Of a stretch of DNA of 64,000 nt, positions 13,150 to 46,693 are shown in pieces; positions within the stretch are counted from its first letter, which is position 1, and each line of letters opens with the position of its first letter. The DNA is taken from contig NZ_JAFMPY010000024.1 of assembly GCF_017353515.1 (NCBI RefSeq), positions 1 to 64,000 of the forward strand. The letters run 5' to 3'. The notes below the pieces were generated by a model. That model had not been told where the DNA came from and did no database searches. It saw only the letters and a list, made by a program, of their open reading frames with translations. The DNA comes from Jiella sonneratiae (lineage in GTDB: Bacteria > Pseudomonadota > Alphaproteobacteria > Rhizobiales > Rhizobiaceae). The translations under genes and the position numbers were made by a program.

Positions 13150-14547
13150 TCACTCAGCGGCGAGGCGCTGTCGCCAGTAGGCCACTTGCCGGCGGACGTT
13201 TTCCGGCGCGGTGCCGCCGAAGCTGGTGCGGCTCGCGACCGAGGCATCGACGCCGAGGACGGCGTAGACCCCCTCGCCGATGCGCGCATCCAGCGATTTC
13301 AGGACGTCGAGCGGCAGGTCCTCGAGACCGAGGCCCGACTTTTCGGCGAGCGACACCGCCCGGCCGGTGACGTGATGGGCCTCGCGGAAGGGCAGGCCGA
13401 GCTCGCGCACCAGATAGTCGGCGAGATCGGTGGCGGTCGCATAGCCGTGGCCGGCCGCCTTGCGCATCGCCGTCTCGTTTACGGTCAGGTCGCGCACCAT
13501 GCCGGTTGCGGCGGCCAGCGCCAGGGCGAGCGAGTCGACCGCGTCGAAGAGCTGCTCCTTGTCCTCCTGCATGTCCTTCGAATAGGTCAGCGGCAGGCCC
13601 TTCATCACCGTCAGCAGCGAGATCAGCGCGCCGTTGATTCGCCCTGGCTTCGCCCGGACGAGCTCGGCGGCGTCGGGATTGCGCTTCTGGGGCATGATCG
13701 AGGAGCCGGTGGAGAACGCGTCCGACAGCCTGACGAAGCCGAACTGCGGCGTCGACCAGATGACGATCTCCTCGGCGAGGCGGGAAAGATGCGTGGCGCA
13801 GATCGCCGCGACCGACAGGAACTCCAGGGCGAAGTCGCGATCCGAGACCGAATCCAGCGAATTGCGCGTCGGCGTCGAAAAGCCCAGCGCCGCCGCGGTC
13901 ATGTGGCGGTCGATCGGAAAGCCGGTGCCGGCGAGCGCGGCGGCGCCGAGCGGGCACTCGTCGAGACGCGCGAGGGCGTCGCGGCAGCGCGAACGGTCGC
14001 GTGCCGCCATCTCGACATAGGCGAGGCAGTGGTGGCCGAAGGTCACCGGCTGAGCGACCTGGAGATGGGTGAAGCCCGGCATGACGGTCTCGGCATGGGC
14101 CTCGGCCTTGTCGAGAAGCGCGGCGATGAAGTCGCCGAGCTTCGCCTCGAGCGCGGTGAAGGCGCCCCGCACGTGCATGCGGAAGTCGACCGCCACCTGA
14201 TCGTTGCGCGAGCGCGCCGTGTGCAGGCGCCCGGCGGCGGGGCCGATCAGTTCGGCGAGCCGCTGCTCGACGTTCATGTGGATGTCCTCGAGCCGTCGCG
14301 AGAACGTGAACGTGCCGGCCTCGATCTCGGCCTCGATCTCCGTCAGACCCGCGACGATCCTTTCGGCATCCTCGGCGGTGACGATGCCGCGATGCGCCAG
14401 CATCTCGGCATGGGCCTTGGAACCGGCGATGTCCTCGCGATAAAGCCTCTTGTCGAAATCGATCGAGGCGTTGATCTCCTCCATGATCGCGTCGGGGCCG
14501 GAGGCGAAGCGCCCGCCCCACATCTCGTTGCTGGTTTTCTGGCTCAT
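13150..14547 (-). CDS. argH: argininosuccinate lyase
   Basis: Cleaves argininosuccinate to arginine and fumarate. 465 residues, as in the family. [21 protein letters not shown] split around the N-terminus, the catalytic-histidine segment [21 protein letters not shown] and the fumarase-superfamily signature [11 protein letters not shown] are all present. The ATG at 14547 is the only start that gives the standard N-terminus. tlpA is divergent, with only 36 bases between the two starts. Confidence 0.97.
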
Positions 14548-14583
14548 CGGATCCGTTGGGCGAAGCTTTGGGAGTAATCGGAT

Positions 14584-15255
14584 ATGGCGGCAGACAAGCG
14601 CGAGCGTCTCGACAGGCGGGTTCTCGGCATGGCCGGGCTGGCGCTCGTGCTCGGCGTCGCGGCGGGCGTCGGCGTCGTATACGTGAGAGAAAGCGGGTCT
14701 GGCAACGCGCTCGCTTCCTCCTGCCCGCGAGACGACGCCTTCAACGCCGCCGTCGACGCCGGGGCGACCGGCGAGGTCGCGGCCGTGCGCGCGCTGGACG
14801 AGCCGTTCGACGCCAGGGCGATCAGCTTCGAGGACGGCGACGGGAAGAAGGTCTCGCTCGCGGCGCTGTCGGGCAAGACGCTGCTCGTCAACGTCTGGGC
14901 GACGTGGTGCGTGCCCTGCCGCGAGGAGATGCCGGCCCTCGACGCGCTCGAGAAAGAGCGCGGCGGCGACGACTTCGGTGTCGTTCCGATCAATGTCGAC
15001 ATCGGCGATGCGAAAAAGCCGAAGAAGTTCTATGCGGAGACGAAGCTCGCGACCCTGCCGCTCTATCACGACGGCTCGCTCGCGACCTTCAACGACCTGA
15101 AGACGAAGGGGCTGACCCTCGGCCTGCCGGTGTCGCTGCTGGTGACCCCGGACGGCTGTGCGCGCGGGGTGATCGCCGGCCCGGCGGAATGGGCAAGCCC
15201 GGACGCGGTCAGGTTGATCGACGCGGTGACGAAGGCCGGCGAGACCGGCGCCTGA
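14584..15255 (+). CDS. tlpA: thiol:disulfide interchange protein TlpA
   Basis: Periplasmic membrane-anchored thioredoxin-like protein of 223 residues. An N-terminal helix ([22 protein letters not shown]) anchors the domain, which carries the redox motif WCVPC in [17 protein letters not shown]. Two further cysteines (SSCPRDD and DGCARG) occur, as in Bradyrhizobium TlpA. TlpA reduces copper chaperones and CoxB during cytochrome oxidase assembly. It is transcribed divergently from argH, a conserved Rhizobiales arrangement. A GC-rich inverted repeat follows the stop at about 15272-15315 and may help termination. Confidence 0.93.
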
Positions 15256-15388
15256 CTTGATGCCGCCGGGCCGTCGGTCGCCGCCGCGGGGCGGCGGATC
15301 CGCGGCGGCCGCGGCCCTTTCGTGCACCCCCAATGTTGCTGCTGTCCGGCAGACGGCCTATCTTCTCGCTACAGTCGGAGATTGCGCC

Positions 15389-15673
15389 ATGACCACCACC
15401 TTGACGCTCGGCGAGCGGGGCGAAGTGATCCTCGCCAAGGACGTGCTCGATCACCTCGGCGTCAAGCCTGGGGCGACACTTGCGATCGACCTCGACCCCG
15501 CCGGGAGGATCAGCATCCGCGCAGCCGAGGGCTCGGCGCCCGGGAACGAAGCGCCGCGCTCCGGGCGCATCGAGGACACGTTCGGGATGTTGAAGCAATA
15601 TTACGACGGCCCGCCATTGACGATCGACGAGATCAACGAAGCCATTGCCGACGGCTGGGCCGGCAAGCGTTGA
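15389..15673 (+). CDS. AbrB/MazE-type antitoxin
   Basis: 94-residue protein with an N-terminal swapped-hairpin DNA-binding domain (TTLTLGERGEVILAKDVLDHLGVKPGATLAIDLDPAGRISI spans residues 3-43) and an acidic C-terminus (TIDEINEAIADGWAGKR) of the kind that wraps around a PIN toxin. It is intact. Its TGA overlaps the TTG start of the adjoining toxin gene, the usual coupling in VapBC modules, but that toxin gene is frameshifted. Confidence 0.85.
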   Translation: MTTTLTLGERGEVILAKDVLDHLGVKPGATLAIDLDPAGRISIRAAEGSAPGNEAPRSGRIEDTFGMLKQYYDGPPLTIDEINEAIADGWAGKR

Positions 15674-16078
15674 ACATCATCGCCGACACAAATCTACTCG
15701 TGCGGGCGATCATTGCCGACGATCCCGCAGCGGGCGACCGTCGCCCGGACGAAGCTGAATAACTCCCGGGCAACCGCGGTTCCTACTGTCACATTCTGCG
15801 AATTTGGCTGGGTGGCGACGAGAACCTACAAGTCGCCCCGTCCCGCTGTCGCCTCGGCGATCCGGTCGCTTCTTGCCGACCCCAAAGTCGTCTGCGACCG
15901 CAATGCCGTCGCGGCGGGGCTGGCGATCCTCGATCGCGGCGGCGACTTCGCCGACGGCGTCATCGCCTTCGAAGGCAGGCGGCTCGGCTGCCCGGTCTTC
16001 GCGACCTTCGACCGCAAGGCCGCCGCGCTGCTTGCGGCGGAAGGCCATGCGGTGGACCTGCTGACCGCCGCGCCGTGA
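15670..16078 (+). pseudogene. vapC: PIN-domain toxin (VapC type), frameshifted
   Basis: The first segment from TTG 15670 reads MNIIADTNLLVRAIIADDPA, a typical PIN start with the metal aspartate in ADTN. That frame then runs to a stop at 15760-15762. The rest of the domain is in the next frame up to 16078: RATVARTKLNNSRA, VTFCEFGWV, GGDFADGVIAFE, FATFDRKAA, with all remaining acidic residues in place. The switch must fall at about 15720-15732 and can be explained by one inserted or two deleted bases. No single frame gives a full toxin, so the gene is probably inactive unless ribosomes shift frame. The degradation is recent, since both halves are otherwise clean. Confidence 0.85.
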
Positions 16079-16084
16079 CGCGAA

Positions 16085-16180
16085 AGCGGGATGAAATGAG
16101 CTTCGCTCATCCTCCCGCTCCATCTTCCTGTTTCCGCATGATCTCTTCCGAAAACCGGTTCCCGCCTGTCGGGATCATGC
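16085..16180 (+). repeat. dispersed repeat, family A, copy 2
   Basis: Small palindrome ATGAGC-TTC-GCTCAT followed by the GCATGATC...GGGATCATGC stem-loop (16136-16180). It lies end to end with a copy of the 101-bp element that starts at 16185, so the vapC remnant is followed by two stacked repeats. Confidence 0.75.
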
Positions 16181-16184
16181 TCTG

Positions 16185-16285
16185 ATACGCGATCCGCTCG
16201 ATCGGAGCGGGTCTCGTATCAAGCCCGCGCGACGAATGAGCGTCTTTGTTTCCGGCATCACGAAGTGATCTGCCGGAAACCGTAT
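16185..16285 (+). repeat. 101-bp mobile palindromic element, copy 1
   Basis: Begins ATACGCGATCC and ends GGAAACCGTAT, so the outermost five bases (ATACG/CGTAT) are inverted repeats. Inside are two stems: CCGCTC/GAGCGG and TTTCCGGC (16249-16256)/GCCGGAAA (16272-16279). It shows near-identical copies at 20723-20824 (inverted) and 46569-46669. No coding potential. It ends nine bases before the stop codon of the downstream-oriented dehydrogenase. Confidence 0.85.
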
Positions 16286-16294
16286 GAGACGCGC

Positions 16295-17176
16295 CTACCG
16301 CGTCGGCACCGGCTCGTCGCCGCGATAGTCGTAGAAGCCGCGCCCGGCCTTGCGGCCGAGCCAGCCGGCCTCGACGTATTTCACCAGGAGCGGGCACGGC
16401 CGGTACTTGGAGTCGGCGAGCCCGTCATAGAGCACCTGCATGATCGACAGGCAGGTGTCGAGGCCGATGAAGTCGGCGAGCTGCAGCGGTCCCATCGGAT
16501 GGTTGGCGCCGAGCTTCATCGCCGTGTCGATGGAGGTCACCGAGCCGACGCCCTCGTAGAGCGTGTAGATCGCCTCGTTGATCATCGGCAGCAGGATGCG
16601 GTTGACGATGAAGGCCGGGAAATCCTCCGACACGGTGATCGTCTTGTCGAGCGCGGCGACGAAGGTCCGCGCCGCCTCGAAGGTCTCCTCCTCGGTGGCG
16701 ATGCCGCGCACCAGCTCGACGAGCTTCATCACCGGCACCGGGTTCATGAAGTGGATGCCCATGAACCGCTCCGGCCGGTCGGTCGCCGCCGCAAGCCGGG
16801 TGATCGAGATCGACGAGGTGTTGGTGGCGAGCATCGCGTCCGGCTTCAGGACCGGGCAGATCTCGCGATAGATCTTGCGCTTGACGGTCTCGTCCTCCGT
16901 CGCCGCCTCGATGACGAGGTCGCGGTCGCCCATTCCGGCGACGTCCGTCGTCCCGGCGATCCGGGCAAAAGCCGCGGCCTTGTCCGCTTCGGTGATCTTC
17001 TCCGAGGCGAGCTGGCGGCCCATCGACTTGTCGATGCGCTGCATCCCCGCGGCGATCCGGTCCTCCGAGAGATCGTAGAGCTTGACGTCGAAGCCCGCGA
17101 GCGCCGCGACATGCGCGATCCCCGCCCCCATCTGGCCCGCACCGACGACGCCGACCGTCCTGATCTCAGAGGCCAT
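16295..17176 (-). CDS. hbd: 3-hydroxybutyryl-CoA dehydrogenase
   Basis: 293-residue NAD-dependent 3-hydroxyacyl-CoA dehydrogenase (fatty-acid, polyhydroxybutyrate or crotonyl-CoA metabolism). The N-terminal Rossmann motif is GVVGAGQMGAGIAHVAA, ATNTSSISIT is present, and the catalytic histidine lies in GIHFMNPVPVMKLVE. The C-terminal helical domain carries GANHPMGPLQLADFIGLD. Length and motifs match HbdA/PaaH of Rhizobiales. It follows etfA on the same strand with a 75-base gap, so it is probably co-expressed with the electron-transfer flavoprotein that accepts electrons from acyl-CoA dehydrogenases. Confidence 0.94.
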   Translation of the reverse strand: MASEIRTVGVVGAGQMGAGIAHVAALAGFDVKLYDLSEDRIAAGMQRIDKSMGRQLASEKITEADKAAAFARIAGTTDVAGMGDRDLVIEAATEDETVKRKIYREICPVLKPDAMLATNTSSISITRLAAATDRPERFMGIHFMNPVPVMKLVELVRGIATEEETFEAARTFVAALDKTITVSEDFPAFIVNRILLPMINEAIYTLYEGVGSVTSIDTAMKLGANHPMGPLQLADFIGLDTCLSIMQVLYDGLADSKYRPCPLLVKYVEAGWLGRKAGRGFYDYRGDEPVPTR

Positions 17177-17251
17177 TTCCGCTCACTCCCATCACTTTTG
17201 TTGCGCTGCAGCATAATCGCCGGAAGGGTAGCGATCAAGCGGCGGATGCGG

Positions 17252-18181
17252 TCAGAGCTTGTCCTTCATCTCCGGCAGGATCTGGAAGAGGTCGCCGACG
17301 AGGCCGTAGTCGGCGACCTGGAAGATCGGCGCCTCCTCGTCCTTGTTGATGGCGACGATGACCTTGGAATCCTTCATGCCGGCGAGATGCTGGATCGCGC
17401 CCGAGATCCCGGCGGCGATGTAGAGTTCGGGGGCGACGACCTTGCCGGTCTGGCCGACCTGCCAGTCGTTCGGCGCGTAGCCCGCATCGACGGCGGCGCG
17501 CGAGGCGCCGACCGCCGCACCCAGCTTGTCGGCGAGCGGCAGGACGTATTCGTCGAACTTCTCCTTGGAGCCGAGCGCCCGCCCCCCGGAGACGATGATC
17601 TTCGCGGCGGTCAGCTCCGGCCGGTCGCTTTCGGCGAGCCTCTCCTCGACGAAGCTCGACAGCCCCGGATCGCCCGCCGCCGCCACCTGTTCCGTCGCGG
17701 CCGAGCCGCCGCTCTCGGCTGCCTGGAAGGCCGAGGTGCGCACCGTGATGACCTTCTTGGCATCCTTCGACTTCACCGTCTGGACGGCGTTGCCGGCATA
17801 GATCGGCCGCTCGAATGTATCGGGCGCGACCACGGCGGTGACGTCGGAGACCTGCATGACGTCGAGCAGCGCGGCGACGCGGGGCGCGACGTTCTTGCCG
17901 GTGGTCGTCGCGGCGAAGACGATCGCGTCGTAGCCGCCGGCGAGCTTCACCACGAGATCGGCCAGCGGCTCGGCCAGCTGGTGGGCGTAGGCGGCATCGT
18001 CGGCGACGAGCACCTTGGCGACGCCGGAAAGCTTCGCCGCCGCTTCGGCGGCGGCGGAGGCGCCGGAGCCGGCGACGAGGACGTCGACGTCGCCTCCGAG
18101 CTTGCTGGCGGCCGACAGCGCCTTGGCGGTCTGCTCGGAAAGCGCCTGGTTGTCGTGTTCGGCGATCAAAAGTGTGGTCAT
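17252..18181 (-). CDS. etfA: electron transfer flavoprotein subunit alpha
   Basis: FAD-binding subunit of ETF, carrying electrons from acyl-CoA and other dehydrogenases to ETF-ubiquinone oxidoreductase. The ATG at 18181 gives [18 protein letters not shown], the standard start; the longer frame uses a TTG. The signature FAD-binding segment is complete: [54 protein letters not shown] and [22 protein letters not shown]. 309 residues. It follows etfB with a 134-base gap that includes a short GTCGAAGC tandem repeat (18293-18316). Confidence 0.96.
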
Positions 18182-18315
18182 CGGCAATGGTCCAATCGTG
18201 GTTCGCCGGCAGATCTTTCGTCAGACCGCGGCGGAAATGGTGACGGCGCGGGCACTCCAGACGGCGCCGATCGCATCCGGGCCTCCTCGCGTCGAAGCGT
18301 CGAAGCGTCGAAGCC

Positions 18316-19065
18316 TCAGAGCACCCCGGCTTCGTTCTTCAGCTTGTCGAGCAGCTCGTCGACGGAGGCCACCTTGACCCCGGCCTGACGGCCCTTCGGC
18401 TCCGCGGTCTTGAGGATTTCAAGGCGCGGCGCCACGTCGACGCCGAAATCTCCCGGGCTCTTCTCGTCGATCGGCTTCTTCTTGGCCTTCATGATGTTCG
18501 GCAGCGAGGCGTAGCGCGGCTCGTTCAGACGAAGATCGGTGGTGACGATCGCCGGCATCTTCAGATCGACCGTCTGCAGGCCGCCGTCGACCTCCCGCGT
18601 CACCTTGGCCCGGCCGTCGGAAAGCTCGACCTTGTTGGCGAAGGTGCCCTGGCTCCAGCCGAGCAGCGCCGCCAGCATCTGGCCGGTCTGGTTGGCGTCG
18701 TCGTCGATCGCCTGCTTGCCGAGGATGACGAGGTCCGGGCTCTCGGCCTCGACGACGCCCTTCAGGATCTTGGCGACGGCGAGCGGCTCGGTCGGCTGGT
18801 CGGTCTTCACCAGGATGCCGCGGTCGGCGCCCATGGCGAGCGCCGTGCGGAGCGTCTCCTGCGCTTGGCTCGGACCGACGGAGACGGCGACGACCTCGCT
18901 CGCCGTCCCGGCCTCCTTCAGGCGGATCGCCTCCTCGACGGCGATTTCGTCGAAGGGGTTCATCGACATCTTCACATTGGCGAGTTCGACGCCCGAACCG
19001 TCCGACTTCACGCGGATCTTGACGTTGTAGTCGACCACCCGCTTCACTGCGACGAGAATCTTCAT
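18316..19065 (-). CDS. etfB: electron transfer flavoprotein subunit beta
   Basis: 249 residues beginning [22 protein letters not shown]-binding and interface motifs are present: [34 protein letters not shown]-like sequence ([18 protein letters not shown]) and the ETF-beta signature [22 protein letters not shown]. An alternative ATG at 19074 adds MPP; GAGGAG lies just upstream of both, so the choice is open. First gene of etfB-etfA-hbd. Confidence 0.96.
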
Positions 19066-19174
19066 GGGCGGCATGTCTCCTCAATATCGTATCGGCGGCG
19101 TTTCGATGCGGCTTCTTGGCGCAAAGAGCGCCGGTTTGGCAAGCGCCGGCGGCCCTTCGGCGCTTCGCAGCGGC

Positions 19175-19747
19175 TCAGCGGCTGCCGCCCGGCACCCAGA
19201 GGACGTCGCCCCTGCCCTCGTCATTGGCGATGCGGGCGGCGACGAAGAGATGGTCTGACAGGCGGTTGACGTAGCGGATCGCCGTCGCGGCGACGGGCTC
19301 GCCGGGCTTGGCCATGAGGGCGATCATCAGCCGCTCGGCGCGCCGCGCGACGGTGCGGGCGTGGTGGAGATGCGCCGCGGCCGGCGAACCGGCCGGCAGG
19401 ACGAAGGACTTCAGCGGTTCGAGCCGGGCATTCATCGCGTCGATCTCGGCCTCGAGCCGTTCGACCTGCGTATCGACGACCTTCAGCGGCTCGAATTCCA
19501 GCTTTCTGCCGGTGTCAGGCGTCGCGAGTTCCGCGCCGAGGTCGAACAGCTCGTTCTGGATGCGGGCGAGCATCCGGTCGAGCGCTTCGCCGGCATGCAG
19601 CCGGGCAAGGCCGATCACCGCGTTGAGCTCGTCGACCGTGCCGTAGGTCTCGACCCTGAGATCCGCCTTCGACCGCCTTTCGCCGTTGCCGAGCGCCGTC
19701 TCGCCGGCATCGCCGGTGCGCGTATAGATCCTGTTGAGCCGAACCAC
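19175..19747 (-). CDS. pduO: cob(I)alamin adenosyltransferase, PduO type
   Basis: Transfers the adenosyl group of ATP to cob(I)alamin, giving coenzyme B12. 190 residues with the ATP-binding start TRTGDAGETALGNG, VETYGTVDELNAVIG, the catalytic helix TVARRAERLMIAL and the C-terminal NRLSDHLFVAARIAN. This is the MMAB/PduO fold, not the CobA type. It is upstream of etfB, and the pairing is common in Rhizobiales. A B12-type radical SAM protein is encoded further along the window, so the cell uses corrinoids. Confidence 0.93.
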   Translation of the reverse strand: MVRLNRIYTRTGDAGETALGNGERRSKADLRVETYGTVDELNAVIGLARLHAGEALDRMLARIQNELFDLGAELATPDTGRKLEFEPLKVVDTQVERLEAEIDAMNARLEPLKSFVLPAGSPAAAHLHHARTVARRAERLMIALMAKPGEPVAATAIRYVNRLSDHLFVAARIANDEGRGDVLWVPGGSR

Positions 19748-19800
19748 GTCGCTCTCCCTCGATGCGCCGCTTGCCGCGGCATGGATGCCGGTGGTCCGGG

Positions 19801-19992
19801 TCAGTGCCTGGCGAGAAGCAGGACGCCGACGATGAGAATCACCGCAAGGCCCTGCAGCATGACCCGGGCCCGCATCAGCTTCTGCGACGTGTTGCCCGAA
19901 CCGCCACGCATCATGTTGACCAGACCGGCGAGAAGAACCCCCGCCGTGACGATCATCACGAGGAGGGCGAGATAGGTCAGAAAACTGGACAT
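19801..19992 (-). CDS. HIG1-domain small membrane protein
   Basis: 63 residues with two transmembrane helices (FLTYLALLVMIVTAGVLLAGL and VMLQGLAVILIVGVLLLA) joined by a polar loop NMMRGGSGNTSQKLMRARV. The second helix and the loop with SQKLMRxRVxxQ match the hypoxia-induced HIG1 family, found in alphaproteobacteria near cobalamin adenosyltransferase and ETF genes and linked in mitochondria to respiratory supercomplexes. The ATG at 19992 removes an unsupported upstream extension. It ends 53 bases before the pduO start. Confidence 0.88.
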   Translation of the reverse strand: MSSFLTYLALLVMIVTAGVLLAGLVNMMRGGSGNTSQKLMRARVMLQGLAVILIVGVLLLARH

Positions 19993-20229
19993 GCCGTCCT
20001 TTCGGCGTCGAAACTGGGGTGGTCCAAGGATCATATAAGGGCGAGGCCGGATTCTGCGACGCCGGCCCTCGGATGAACCCGCCCGCCGATTCTCACCCCC
20101 CGGTGGTGCAGGATACCTCGAGATGGGCCCTCGTGGCCCGATGCAGGCTCAAAGTGAGCCGATCACGGAGCGATCTCCGCGTATCAAGCGACCGTCGGCC
20201 GTGATAGGCTGGGCGAAACGGAGGGCCTT

Positions 20230-20511
20230 ATGTCCGCGACGACGAAGCGCAGCATCGATCTGCCGGCGGAGCACGCCGCCTATGTGGACGATCTCGTCGC
20301 TTCCGGCGCCTATGCTTCCGAGAGCGACGTCGTCGGGGCGGCACTTCTGGCACTGCGGGACCGCGACATGGCGGTCGAGCATTGGCTCAGAACGGCGGTT
20401 GCGCCGGCCTATGACGCGGCCGAGGCAGATCCGGAGCGAGCGATCGGTCTCGACGAGGTCTTCGCCGACCTGCGTGCGCGGCACGCAAATCGCCTGGCGG
20501 GGCACGATTGA
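20230..20511 (+). CDS. parD: ParD-family antitoxin
   Basis: 93 residues. An N-terminal ribbon-helix-helix domain (TKRSIDLPAEHAAYVDDLVASGAYASESDVVGAALLALRDRD spans residues 5-46) is followed by the acidic helical tail that neutralises ParE. GGAG stands ahead of the ATG. The gene is intact. Its TGA overlaps the TTG of the following parE reading frame. Confidence 0.88.
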   Translation: MSATTKRSIDLPAEHAAYVDDLVASGAYASESDVVGAALLALRDRDMAVEHWLRTAVAPAYDAAEADPERAIGLDEVFADLRARHANRLAGHD

Positions 20512-20912
20512 GACGGCGTGCCGTCGATTTTCACCAGAAGCCCTGCAGGATCTGCGCGATCTCTACGACTTCGTCGCCGACAGGGCCGGCCCTGCGGTCG
20601 CCATCCGCTACGTCGAGCGCATCGAAACTTCCTGCCGGGCCATGGCGACGGCCGCCGAACGGGGCCAGAGGCGGGACGACATCCGTCCAGGACTTCGGAT
20701 CGTCGGTTTCGAACGGCGTGTGATACGGTTTCCGGCAGATCACGTCGTGATGCCGGAAACAACGACGCTCATTCGCCGCGCGGGCTTGATACGAGCCCCC
20801 CCTCTGATCGAGCGGATCTCGTATGACGATCGCCTTCAGGGTCTCGGAATCGCAGGTCCTGATCCTGCGCCTGTTCTATGGCGGCCAGGACTGGGCGAAA
20901 TCGTTCGACTGA
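20508..20912 (+). pseudogene. parE: ParE toxin gene broken by a 1-bp slip and an inserted repeat
   Basis: From TTG 20508 the frame reads MRRRAVDF and then goes wrong; adding one T to the TTTT tract at 20528-20531 restores VDFSPEALQDLRDLYDFVADRAGPAVAIRYVERIE across the next residues. That frame continues through RRDDIRPGLRIVGFERRV to 20722. The family would continue VTIAFxVxxxxVxILRLFYGG, and exactly that (TIAFRVSESQVLILRLFYGGQDW) resumes at 20826 in another frame, ending at the TGA 20910-20912. The 103 bases between are one copy of the 101-bp element plus one base. Two independent lesions therefore inactivate the toxin, and the insertion shows the repeat is mobile. Confidence 0.9.
20723..20824 (-). 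repeat. 101-bp mobile palindromic element, copy 2 (inside parE)
   Basis: 102 bases, inverted relative to copy 1. Left junction is after G20722 and right junction before G20825; removing it together with one G rejoins GTG-ACG and restores the ParE sequence GFERRV-TIAF. Only one or two bases (G or TG) can be a target duplication. The same two stems as copy 1 are present. Confidence 0.88.
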
Positions 20913-20957
20913 CCGGTTGGAGAGCAGGGTGATGGGTGGAGCCCGTCTCACCGCGCT

Positions 20958-23440
<2,483 letters not shown>

Positions 23441-23569
23441 CGGCGGCCGGGCGCCTCCCCATCGAGCCGGGCGTTTCTCGGCGATCGATTAAGATCGTCG
23501 TTCTTGCGGAAGCGTGGACGTAAGGAGTTTCGATACACGATCGCCGGGACTGTCCACCCGGGAGAGACC

Positions 23570-24076
23570 GTGATTTCCATCGAAGCCCTGCGACCGGTCG
23601 CGGCACGGCAGAACGCCGCTGCGACCGACCAGCCTCGAAGCCGGGGCGAGCCCCTCGGCGTCGATGCGGCCGCCGGTGCGGCAGCGGGAACGGCGGGCTC
23701 CCGGAACGGCCTGGCGGGGAACATGTCGCTCGCGAACCGGGCCGGTCCGACGGGGCCTTCGACCAACGCCGCCGACCGCGCCGCCACCGCCGGTGCCGCC
23801 CTCATCTTCGTCGCCGAAGACCGGCGTGCCCTCCTTGCCGGCTCGCTGCGTTCGCCCGCCATCAACGACGCCTTCATCGACGACGCGAAGGCCAAAGCGG
23901 AGGAACGCGCCACGGCCCTCCGCTTCACCCGCAGCATGCGCAGCCTCGCCGGCCTCGCGGCGGAAAACGCGCTCGCCGTCCGGGAGGGTCAGGAGCGCCC
24001 CGACGCCGTCGCCTCTACCGGCGGAAAGGCCGGCGAGGTCGCCCTCGCCCGCGCCGCCTATGGCGAGGCGACGTGA
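23570..24076 (+). CDS. hypothetical protein (168 aa), Ala-rich
   Basis: No family recognised. The GTG at 23570 is preferred because GGAGAG lies at 23561-23566; a TTG at 23504 in the same frame would add 22 residues. The protein is soluble-looking, without signal or membrane segment. It has an Ala/Gly/Arg-rich first half and a more ordered helical second half (AINDAFIDDAKAKAEERATALRFTRSMRSL). It follows the chemoreceptor on the same strand and converges on mfd. Codon third-position GC is as high as in its neighbours, which supports coding. Confidence 0.55.
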   Translation: MISIEALRPVAARQNAAATDQPRSRGEPLGVDAAAGAAAGTAGSRNGLAGNMSLANRAGPTGPSTNAADRAATAGAALIFVAEDRRALLAGSLRSPAINDAFIDDAKAKAEERATALRFTRSMRSLAGLAAENALAVREGQERPDAVASTGGKAGEVALARAAYGEAT

Positions 24077-46395: not shown

Positions 46396-46568
46396 CGCCG
46401 AATTCCTGTTCTCGTCGCGTCGCTCGCGCCTGTCGCGCGCCCGTTCCATGGTCGCGAGGCGCAGGAGGCGCAAGCGCGCCAGCCTCGACCGCGCCGCCGG
46501 AAAGCTCGCAGGCCGGCTGCCGGGCGCGACGAAACGGGGCGGCCGTCGCCAGCCGCCCCGAACGCATG

Positions 46569-46669
46569 ATACGCGATCCGCTCGATGAGAGCGGGGCTCG
46601 TATCGAGCCCGCGCGGCGAATGAGCGTCTTTGTTTCCGGCTTCACGAAGTGATCTGCCGGAAACCGCAT
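46569..46669 (+). repeat. 101-bp mobile palindromic element, copy 3
   Basis: Begins ATACGCGATCCGCTCGATGA and ends GCCGGAAACCGCAT. Same orientation as copy 1 and only a few mismatches to it, mostly in the first stem; the last bases CGCAT differ from CGTAT in copy 1. It ends 24 bases before the stop of the symporter gene, again close to the 3' end of a gene. Confidence 0.85.
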
Positions 46670-46693
46670 GAGTTCAAAAATCCTGCCGGACGC

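What the first reader, a model, noticed from the sequence alone, without database searches (positions are those of the whole stretch)
20723..20824. A roughly 101-bp palindromic element inserted precisely into parE
Removing 20723-20825 rejoins FERRV to TIAFRVSESQ, the expected continuous ParE sequence. Near-identical copies lie at 16185-16285 and 46569-46669. The ends are short inverted repeats (ATACG/CGTAT) and the interior folds into two stems. A precise insertion inside a gene shows that the unit moves, so it is a miniature non-autonomous element and not merely a degenerate REP.
Basis: seen in the sequence. Interest (0 to 1): 0.75.

Follow-up and report, generated by a model that had tools for sequence, protein, structure and literature searches.

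The report
Stop-codon-loving miniature mobile element in Jiella
A roughly 100-letter mobile DNA element, present in about 68 copies in this bacterium, copies three letters of its landing site (often a gene's stop signal) and in one case has landed inside a toxin-antitoxin gene; it is a new family of a broadly known kind, and the enzyme that moves it was not found.

Summary
The element in parE is one of 68 copies in this Jiella genome. Its true edges are a core (TACGG...CGTA, 100 bp in parE, usually 99) between two copies of a 3-bp TNA target duplication (TGA in parE). With edges fixed by a model, 54 of 68 copies have TNA on both sides and 48 of 54 carry the same middle base (0 of 20,000 shuffles reach this). 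Four ParE homologues run on unbroken exactly where the insert lies.

All five Jiella relatives searched for the centre motif carry cousins with the same plan: hairpin A, a conserved ~26-nt centre, hairpin B, TNA duplication. Their hairpin sequences differ, and hairpin A keeps its pairing through compensatory changes. The centre is absent from 148 sampled family genomes outside the genus.

In 33 of 68 copies the duplicated triplet is a predicted stop codon of a neighbouring gene (27 at the A end), about twice what local context predicts; 7 of 19 cousins agree. No RAYT-type transposase and no longer element with these ends were found. A resident IS5-family element makes the same kind of duplication but has different ends.

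Best reading: a genus-specific miniature non-autonomous transposon; its enzyme is unknown.

The parts
20721..20723 (+). left target-site duplication (TGA), copy in parE
   Evidence: sequence; alignment of ends
20724..20823 (+). element core, 100 bp, order hairpin B - conserved centre - hairpin A
20727..20760 (+). hairpin B (GGTTTCCGGCAGATCAC...GTGATGCCGGAAAC)
20766..20791 (-). conserved centre shared across the genus (TATCAAGCCCGCGCGGCGAATGAGCG)
20786..20826 (+). hairpin A (palindrome TTGATACGAG...CTCGTATGA; arms read from the sequence, the fold programs preferred other pairings in this copy)
   Evidence: sequence; homologous hairpin in relatives
20824..20826 (+). right target-site duplication (TGA)
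20510..20722 (+). 5' part of the interrupted parE reading frame
   Evidence: Pfam PF05016 E 3.8e-10; homologues
20826..20912 (+). 3' part of parE after the insertion (28 codons and stop)
   Evidence: matches the C-terminus of 4 homologues
20230..20511 (+). parD antitoxin gene
   Evidence: Pfam PF03693 E 2.3e-4, just over its cut-off
16183..16287 (-). second copy with TGA/TGA (+ strand) at its ends, between a PIN-domain gene and a 3-hydroxyacyl-CoA dehydrogenase gene
46567..46671 (-). third copy with TGA/TGA (+ strand) at its ends

Best explanation
The unit is a miniature, non-autonomous DNA transposon. It has a 99-100 bp core made of two side-by-side hairpins joined by a conserved centre, and it inserts at a TNA triplet (most often CTSAG or GTCAG) through a 3-bp staggered cut that duplicates TNA. 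Shown: copy number, fixed ends, the 3-bp duplication, precise insertion in parE, absence at the alignable sites in relatives, the shared plan with different hairpins across the genus, and paired changes in hairpin A. Shown by gene prediction: about half of the copies sit exactly on a gene's stop codon, which the duplication restores, so the gene keeps its stop. Inferred: a transposase supplied in trans (most likely DDE type, of the IS5 sort, because of the TNA duplication) moves it. Also inferred: copies persist mainly at gene ends because these sites are harmless, and the hairpins act at most as terminators or mRNA-end structures. The parE copy is an out-of-frame hit inside a dispensable toxin gene and truncates it.
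For: 68 copies. 54 of 68 have TNA at both ends, 48 of 54 identical, shuffled mean 30.4, 0 of 20,000 shuffles reach 48. Context: CTSAG and GTCAG make up 29 of 48 clean duplications although they are 225 of 1,666 non-coding or stop TNA sites. A tandem pair in C71 shares one TCA. Four of 4 fetched ParE homologues are contiguous at the insertion point. Five of 8 queried sites were alignable in relatives; 0 of 20 relative loci carry the element or its centre. Relatives: 33 loci examined, both ends found in 25, triplets identical in 20 (the finder favours identical ends somewhat). Hairpin A: 7 pairs with paired changes, whole-structure covariation score 0.179 vs 0.113 shuffled, 0 of 500. Stop codons: 33 of 68; 25-26 of 48 clean copies vs 12.6-14.6 expected under four gene-calling settings. 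Relatives: 7 of 19. A resident IS5-family element (NF033580) with TCA/TCA in this genome, and copies with TTA/TTA and TCA/TTA in a relative, show that TNA-cutting transposases occur in the genus.
Against: No autonomous partner: all 61 hits of the hairpin-B pattern fall in the 68 known copies. Pairs of the relatives' end motif in 3 relatives gave nothing convincing; the one 1.5-kb candidate that I inspected in G001 has nicotinamidase-like and other ordinary genes inside and no recognised transposase (names by eye). DDE_Tnp_1 loci (9 of 9 here, 30 of 32 in four relatives) lack such paired ends. Terminal inverted repeats are short and imperfect, and between subfamilies only TAC...GTA is kept, which is unusual for a transposase-recognised MITE. 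Six of 54 copies have unlike triplets. This genome's own copies show no paired changes in the folded structure (0 of 33 pairs). No exact pre-insertion allele was seen. The draft assembly may hide multi-copy IS elements at contig ends.
Confidence: 0.82

Rival explanations
1. It is a REPIN/BIME-like pair of REP sequences spread by a REP-associated tyrosine transposase (RAYT).
For: About 100 bp, two hairpins, mostly downstream of genes: 35 convergent, 26 tandem and 3 divergent contexts of 68, 4 at locus edges.
Against: No Y1_Tnp match in the genome although 5 of 14 control genomes ring. A 3-bp target duplication is present. The GTAG tag described for RAYT-linked REPs (PMC3733652, abstract and passages seen) is not part of the core.
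Confidence: 0.05
2. It is a structured RNA or terminator element kept by selection at gene ends, and copies arise mainly by duplication of useful sequence.
For: Paired changes in hairpin A, position at stop codons, orientation bias with hairpin A next to the stop (27 A vs 6 B).
Against: No Rfam match above gathering score in window 14000-24000, which holds two copies. Absent at the orthologous gene ends in relatives. The TNA duplication and the insertion inside parE call for insertion. Function may be secondary.
Confidence: 0.08
3. Stop-codon location is only a by-product: the transposase cuts at CTSAG/GTCAG and insertions survive where they do no harm.
For: 40 of 81 non-coding CTSAG sites are themselves predicted stop codons; with a CTSAG-only null (49%) 33 of 68 is no excess (P 0.60), whereas a context-blind TCA/TGA null gives 10%.
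Against: The context-matched expectation is 12.6-14.6 against 25-26 seen in 48 clean copies, and the A end is favoured (27:6). Missed genes would raise the expectation, so this remains open.
Confidence: 0.45

Closest known systems
RIME1/RIME2 (Rhizobium-specific intergenic mosaic elements; features recalled, original paper not held, cited in passages of PMC2573895)
   Same: About 108 bp, two large palindromes, intergenic, mosaic, Hyphomicrobiales (recalled).
   Different: The ~110-bp double-palindrome repeat found in 300 kb of S. meliloti pSymB (taken to be RIME1-like from recall) shares at most 8-base matches with the element. Its edges are CTA/CTA in 2 of the 5 aligned rows and mixed (TTA/CTA, TTA/CTG, one partial) in the others.
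REPIN/BIME with RAYT
   Same: Two hairpins, ~100 bp, gene 3' ends.
   Different: Target duplication present, no Y1_Tnp found, no GTAG tag in the core.
MITEs of IS5-family type, and in eukaryotes Tourist/PIF-Harbinger elements (TNA of IS1031 and TWA of Tourist recalled)
   Same: 3-bp TNA duplication; a resident IS5-family element makes it too.
   Different: Ends TAC... differ from that IS (GAACCCGAGCGAAAAG here, GAGCCCGAGCGAAAAG in a relative); the inverted repeats are short, each end is itself a palindrome, and the centre is the part best kept across the genus.
ERIC, RUP, Correia/NEMIS elements (recalled)
   Same: Short, non-autonomous, palindromic, many intergenic copies.
   Different: They duplicate TA (recalled), here TNA.

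Membership tests
bacterial MITE (generic) | short, non-coding, many near-identical copies | tested here: met
   68 copies of ~105 bp including duplications
bacterial MITE (generic) | target-site duplication | tested here: met
   TNA, 48 of 54 identical, 14 of 68 without TNA at both ends
bacterial MITE (generic) | terminal inverted repeats shared with an autonomous element | tested here: inconclusive
   short imperfect repeats only; no partner found in a draft genome and in 4 relatives
REPIN/REP with RAYT | RAYT (Y1_Tnp) gene in the genome | tested here: not met
   0 matches, 5 of 14 controls ring; draft genome 98% complete
REPIN/REP with RAYT | no target duplication (recalled) | tested here: not met
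   duplication present
RIME | ~108 bp with two large palindromes (recalled) | tested here: met
RIME | sequence similarity to RIME1/2 | tested here: inconclusive
   RIME sequence not held; a likely RIME1-like repeat from pSymB shares at most 8 bases in a row
IS5-family-derived MITE | TNA duplication (recalled for the IS1031 group) | tested here: met
   resident IS5-family element with TCA/TCA
IS5-family-derived MITE | ends like those of an IS5-family element in the genus | tested here: not met

The most novel reading that the evidence does not exclude
A mobile element whose ends are recognised by shape rather than by fixed sequence. Hairpin arms change sequence together while pairing, a ~26-nt centre and the TAC...GTA/TNA edges are kept, and an unidentified transposase places it in a preferred orientation on stop codons, regenerating the stop. 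That would be a new way for a parasite to enter a compact genome without breaking genes.
Probability: 0.18. Interest if true: 0.7.

Novelty: new variant of a known kind. Interest (0 to 1): 0.45.

Why it matters
Short palindromic repeats at gene ends are common in bacteria, and their origin is usually argued rather than shown. Here the edges, the duplicated triplet and the target rule can be read directly. The stop-codon habit offers a simple, testable account of how such repeats settle harmlessly at gene 3' ends. The turnover of hairpin sequence around a fixed centre is a handle on what the moving enzyme recognises.

Tried and rejected
RAYT/REPIN: rejected for lack of Y1_Tnp and presence of a duplication. 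Parent IS by hairpin pattern, by end motif in 3 relatives (one candidate region and three further places inspected) and by DDE_Tnp_1 loci in this genome and 4 relatives: none found. The conserved centre looked like the left end of the resident IS5-family element (AGCCCGnGCG...TTGAGCG). Shuffles did not support it consistently: of 2,000 shuffles, 319, 41 and 3 reached the score against the ends of three IS copies, and 987, 352 and 131 against the whole IS; it stays an unsupported lead. Viral contigs: 0 exact hits of the centre. Rfam: no match in window 14000-24000. Plasmids: 3 weak matches, none over most of the query. A near pre-insertion allele could not be found: the genus in the collection is 10 genomes, flank matches 69-93% identical, intergenic DNA not alignable. 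One 51-bp match to the parE region in G005 is not a parE orthologue: the pieces match it only at E 0.007 or worse. Papers: searched; listings only, apart from passages of PMC2573895, PMC2873474 and PMC3733652. No description of this element was seen in them, but most subscription papers are not held.

Full report
What is there. The window lies on contig C15 of a 76-contig, 5.15-Mb genome. parD is recognisable at 20230-20511. The parE frame follows it and is interrupted by the element. Read in the direction hairpin A - centre - hairpin B, the element is TNA | TAC-hairpin A-GTATCAA-GCCCGCGCGGCGAATGAGCG-hairpin B-GTA | TNA. In parE it lies in the opposite direction (B to A on the + strand).

Copies and edges. 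BLAST of the 102-bp query gave 41 matches at 92% identity or more, with a limit on the candidates scored. A covariance model from 26 copies (A1; model R1) found 68 at E <= 0.01, with 150 of 7,761 candidates scored; its training rows match by construction. With edges fixed by the model, 54 of 68 copies have T-N-A at both sides and 48 of 54 share N (36 TCA, 10 TGA, 2 TTA as read on the B-to-A strand). Shuffling pairs gave a mean of 30.4, and none of 20,000 shuffles reached 48. Of the 14 copies left out, 8 differ from TNA by one base at one edge and 6 are truncated or degenerate (list). The base before is C in 37 of 68 and the base after is G in 37 of 68. Two copies in C71 stand head to tail and share one TCA.

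parE. The two pieces were searched apart. The upstream piece matches ParE_toxin and 190 plasmid records. In four fetched homologues the upstream piece's match ends at residue 65, 64, 64 and 70 of the translated stretch, and the downstream piece's begins at 66, 66, 66 and 71; in the second and third the last upstream residue differs and falls outside the local alignment. So the insertion is exact to the codon. The open frame printed runs on through the element to 20932, so the ordinary C-terminus is lost. Among the 10 Jiella genomes held, no other has a clear match to this parDE locus at DNA level; one 51-bp match in G005 is not a parE orthologue by the two pieces.

Relatives. Using the centre as a pattern with up to 3 mismatches, all five relatives searched carry copies: 16, 15, 6, 6 and 3. 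G002 has none. G003, G005 and G009 were searched only with this genome's element, without a match. Among 151 family genomes only this genome and G007 had the centre; 3 of the 151 are in the genus and the other 148 had none. An exact scan of 84,980 species genomes gave 4 stretches, all Jiella (records of the window's own genome may be left out). In 33 relatives' loci examined, both edges were found in 25 and the triplets agree in 20; the finder gives a bonus for agreement. The hairpins differ between species, with three types seen, but the plan is kept. On 17 of 19 intact relatives' elements (one of another type and one short were left out), 7 of 35 pairs, all in hairpin A, show changes on both sides; the covariation score of the whole structure is 0.179 against 0.113 in shuffles, 0 of 500. 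Among 26 of this genome's own copies no folded pair shows such changes, as expected for a recent burst but giving no support of its own.

Empty sites. Eight sites (chosen for coding flanks, none in parE) were searched in the nine genus relatives. For five sites I aligned 20 relatives' loci, and none has the element or its centre. In these alignments the duplicated triplet lines up with a stop codon in the relatives (for example TGA in 3 of 3 at C60:36080 and the complement TCA in 8 of 8 at C60:34632). The intergenic DNA is too diverged to read the exact pre-insertion junction.

Stop codons. With a hexamer gene model trained on these loci, the triplet is the stop of a predicted neighbouring gene in 33 of 68 copies, 27 at the A end and 6 at the B end; a simpler frame test gave 24 A-end and 5 B-end stops. 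Non-coding or stop TCA/TGA sites in the same loci are predicted stops in 10% of cases, but CTSAG sites in 49%, and against that last figure 33 of 68 is no excess. Matching each clean copy to its own 5-base context gives 12.6 expected against 25 observed of 48, and 12.6-14.6 against 25-26 under four gene-calling settings. The predicted coding fraction of 0.76-0.78 may be too low, and missed genes would raise the expectation, so the excess is likely but not settled. Read A to B, the triplet is TGA in 36 and TCA in 10 (p 1.6e-4); among copies not at a stop it is 16 and 6 (p 0.05). Seven of 19 relatives' copies also sit on a predicted stop, six at the A end. Contexts are 35 convergent, 26 tandem, 3 divergent and 4 at locus edges.

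Mover. No Y1_Tnp gene was found, while 5 of 14 control genomes ring. DDE_Tnp_1 gave 9 matches here and 32 in four relatives; 9 and 30 loci of these were inspected and none shows the element's paired ends. One of them, in this genome (C8), is an IS5-family element (286-aa transposase, NF033580 above its cut-off, DUF4096 and DDE_Tnp_1) flanked by TCA/TCA; related ones in G006 are flanked by TTA/TTA and TCA/TTA. So the TNA cut exists in the genus, but its ends differ. All 61 hits of the hairpin-B pattern are in the 68 copies. The mover is therefore inferred, not shown.

Comparison. The plan resembles RIME (recalled) and REPIN, and the duplication resembles the IS5/IS1031 type (recalled). The S. 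meliloti double-palindrome repeat inspected for comparison has CTA-like edges and at most 8-base matches to the element. I file this as a new family within the broad kind 'miniature non-autonomous transposons', not as a member of RIME or REPIN.

Noticed in passing
window 16131-16182: A second palindromic repeat-like stretch (GCATGATC...CCGAAAACCGG...GATCATGC type, recalled as common in Hyphomicrobiales) abuts the element copy at 16183-16287.
   Followed up: no
L099 (G000:C4:157171-157283): A hybrid: a GGGCATGATCCCGG...GGGAACCGG stretch takes the place of hairpin B and is joined to the centre and hairpin A of the element, suggesting mosaic exchange of modules.
   Followed up: partly
window 15257-16078: A PIN-domain gene next to a small ORF that looks AbrB/MazE-like (by eye, not tested); the PIN reading frame appears split between two frames around 15710-15762, so it may be a pseudogene.
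   Followed up: no
L113 about 1093-2028 (G000:C8): IS5-family element, 286-aa transposase, left end GAACCCGAGCGAAAAG, flanked by TCA/TCA; copies in G006 have TTA/TTA and TCA/TTA.
   Followed up: yes
L067, L108, L168 (hairpin B missing) and L068 (hairpin A missing): In relatives some copies have lost one hairpin but keep the centre and the other hairpin, as if each hairpin can be deleted cleanly.
   Followed up: partly
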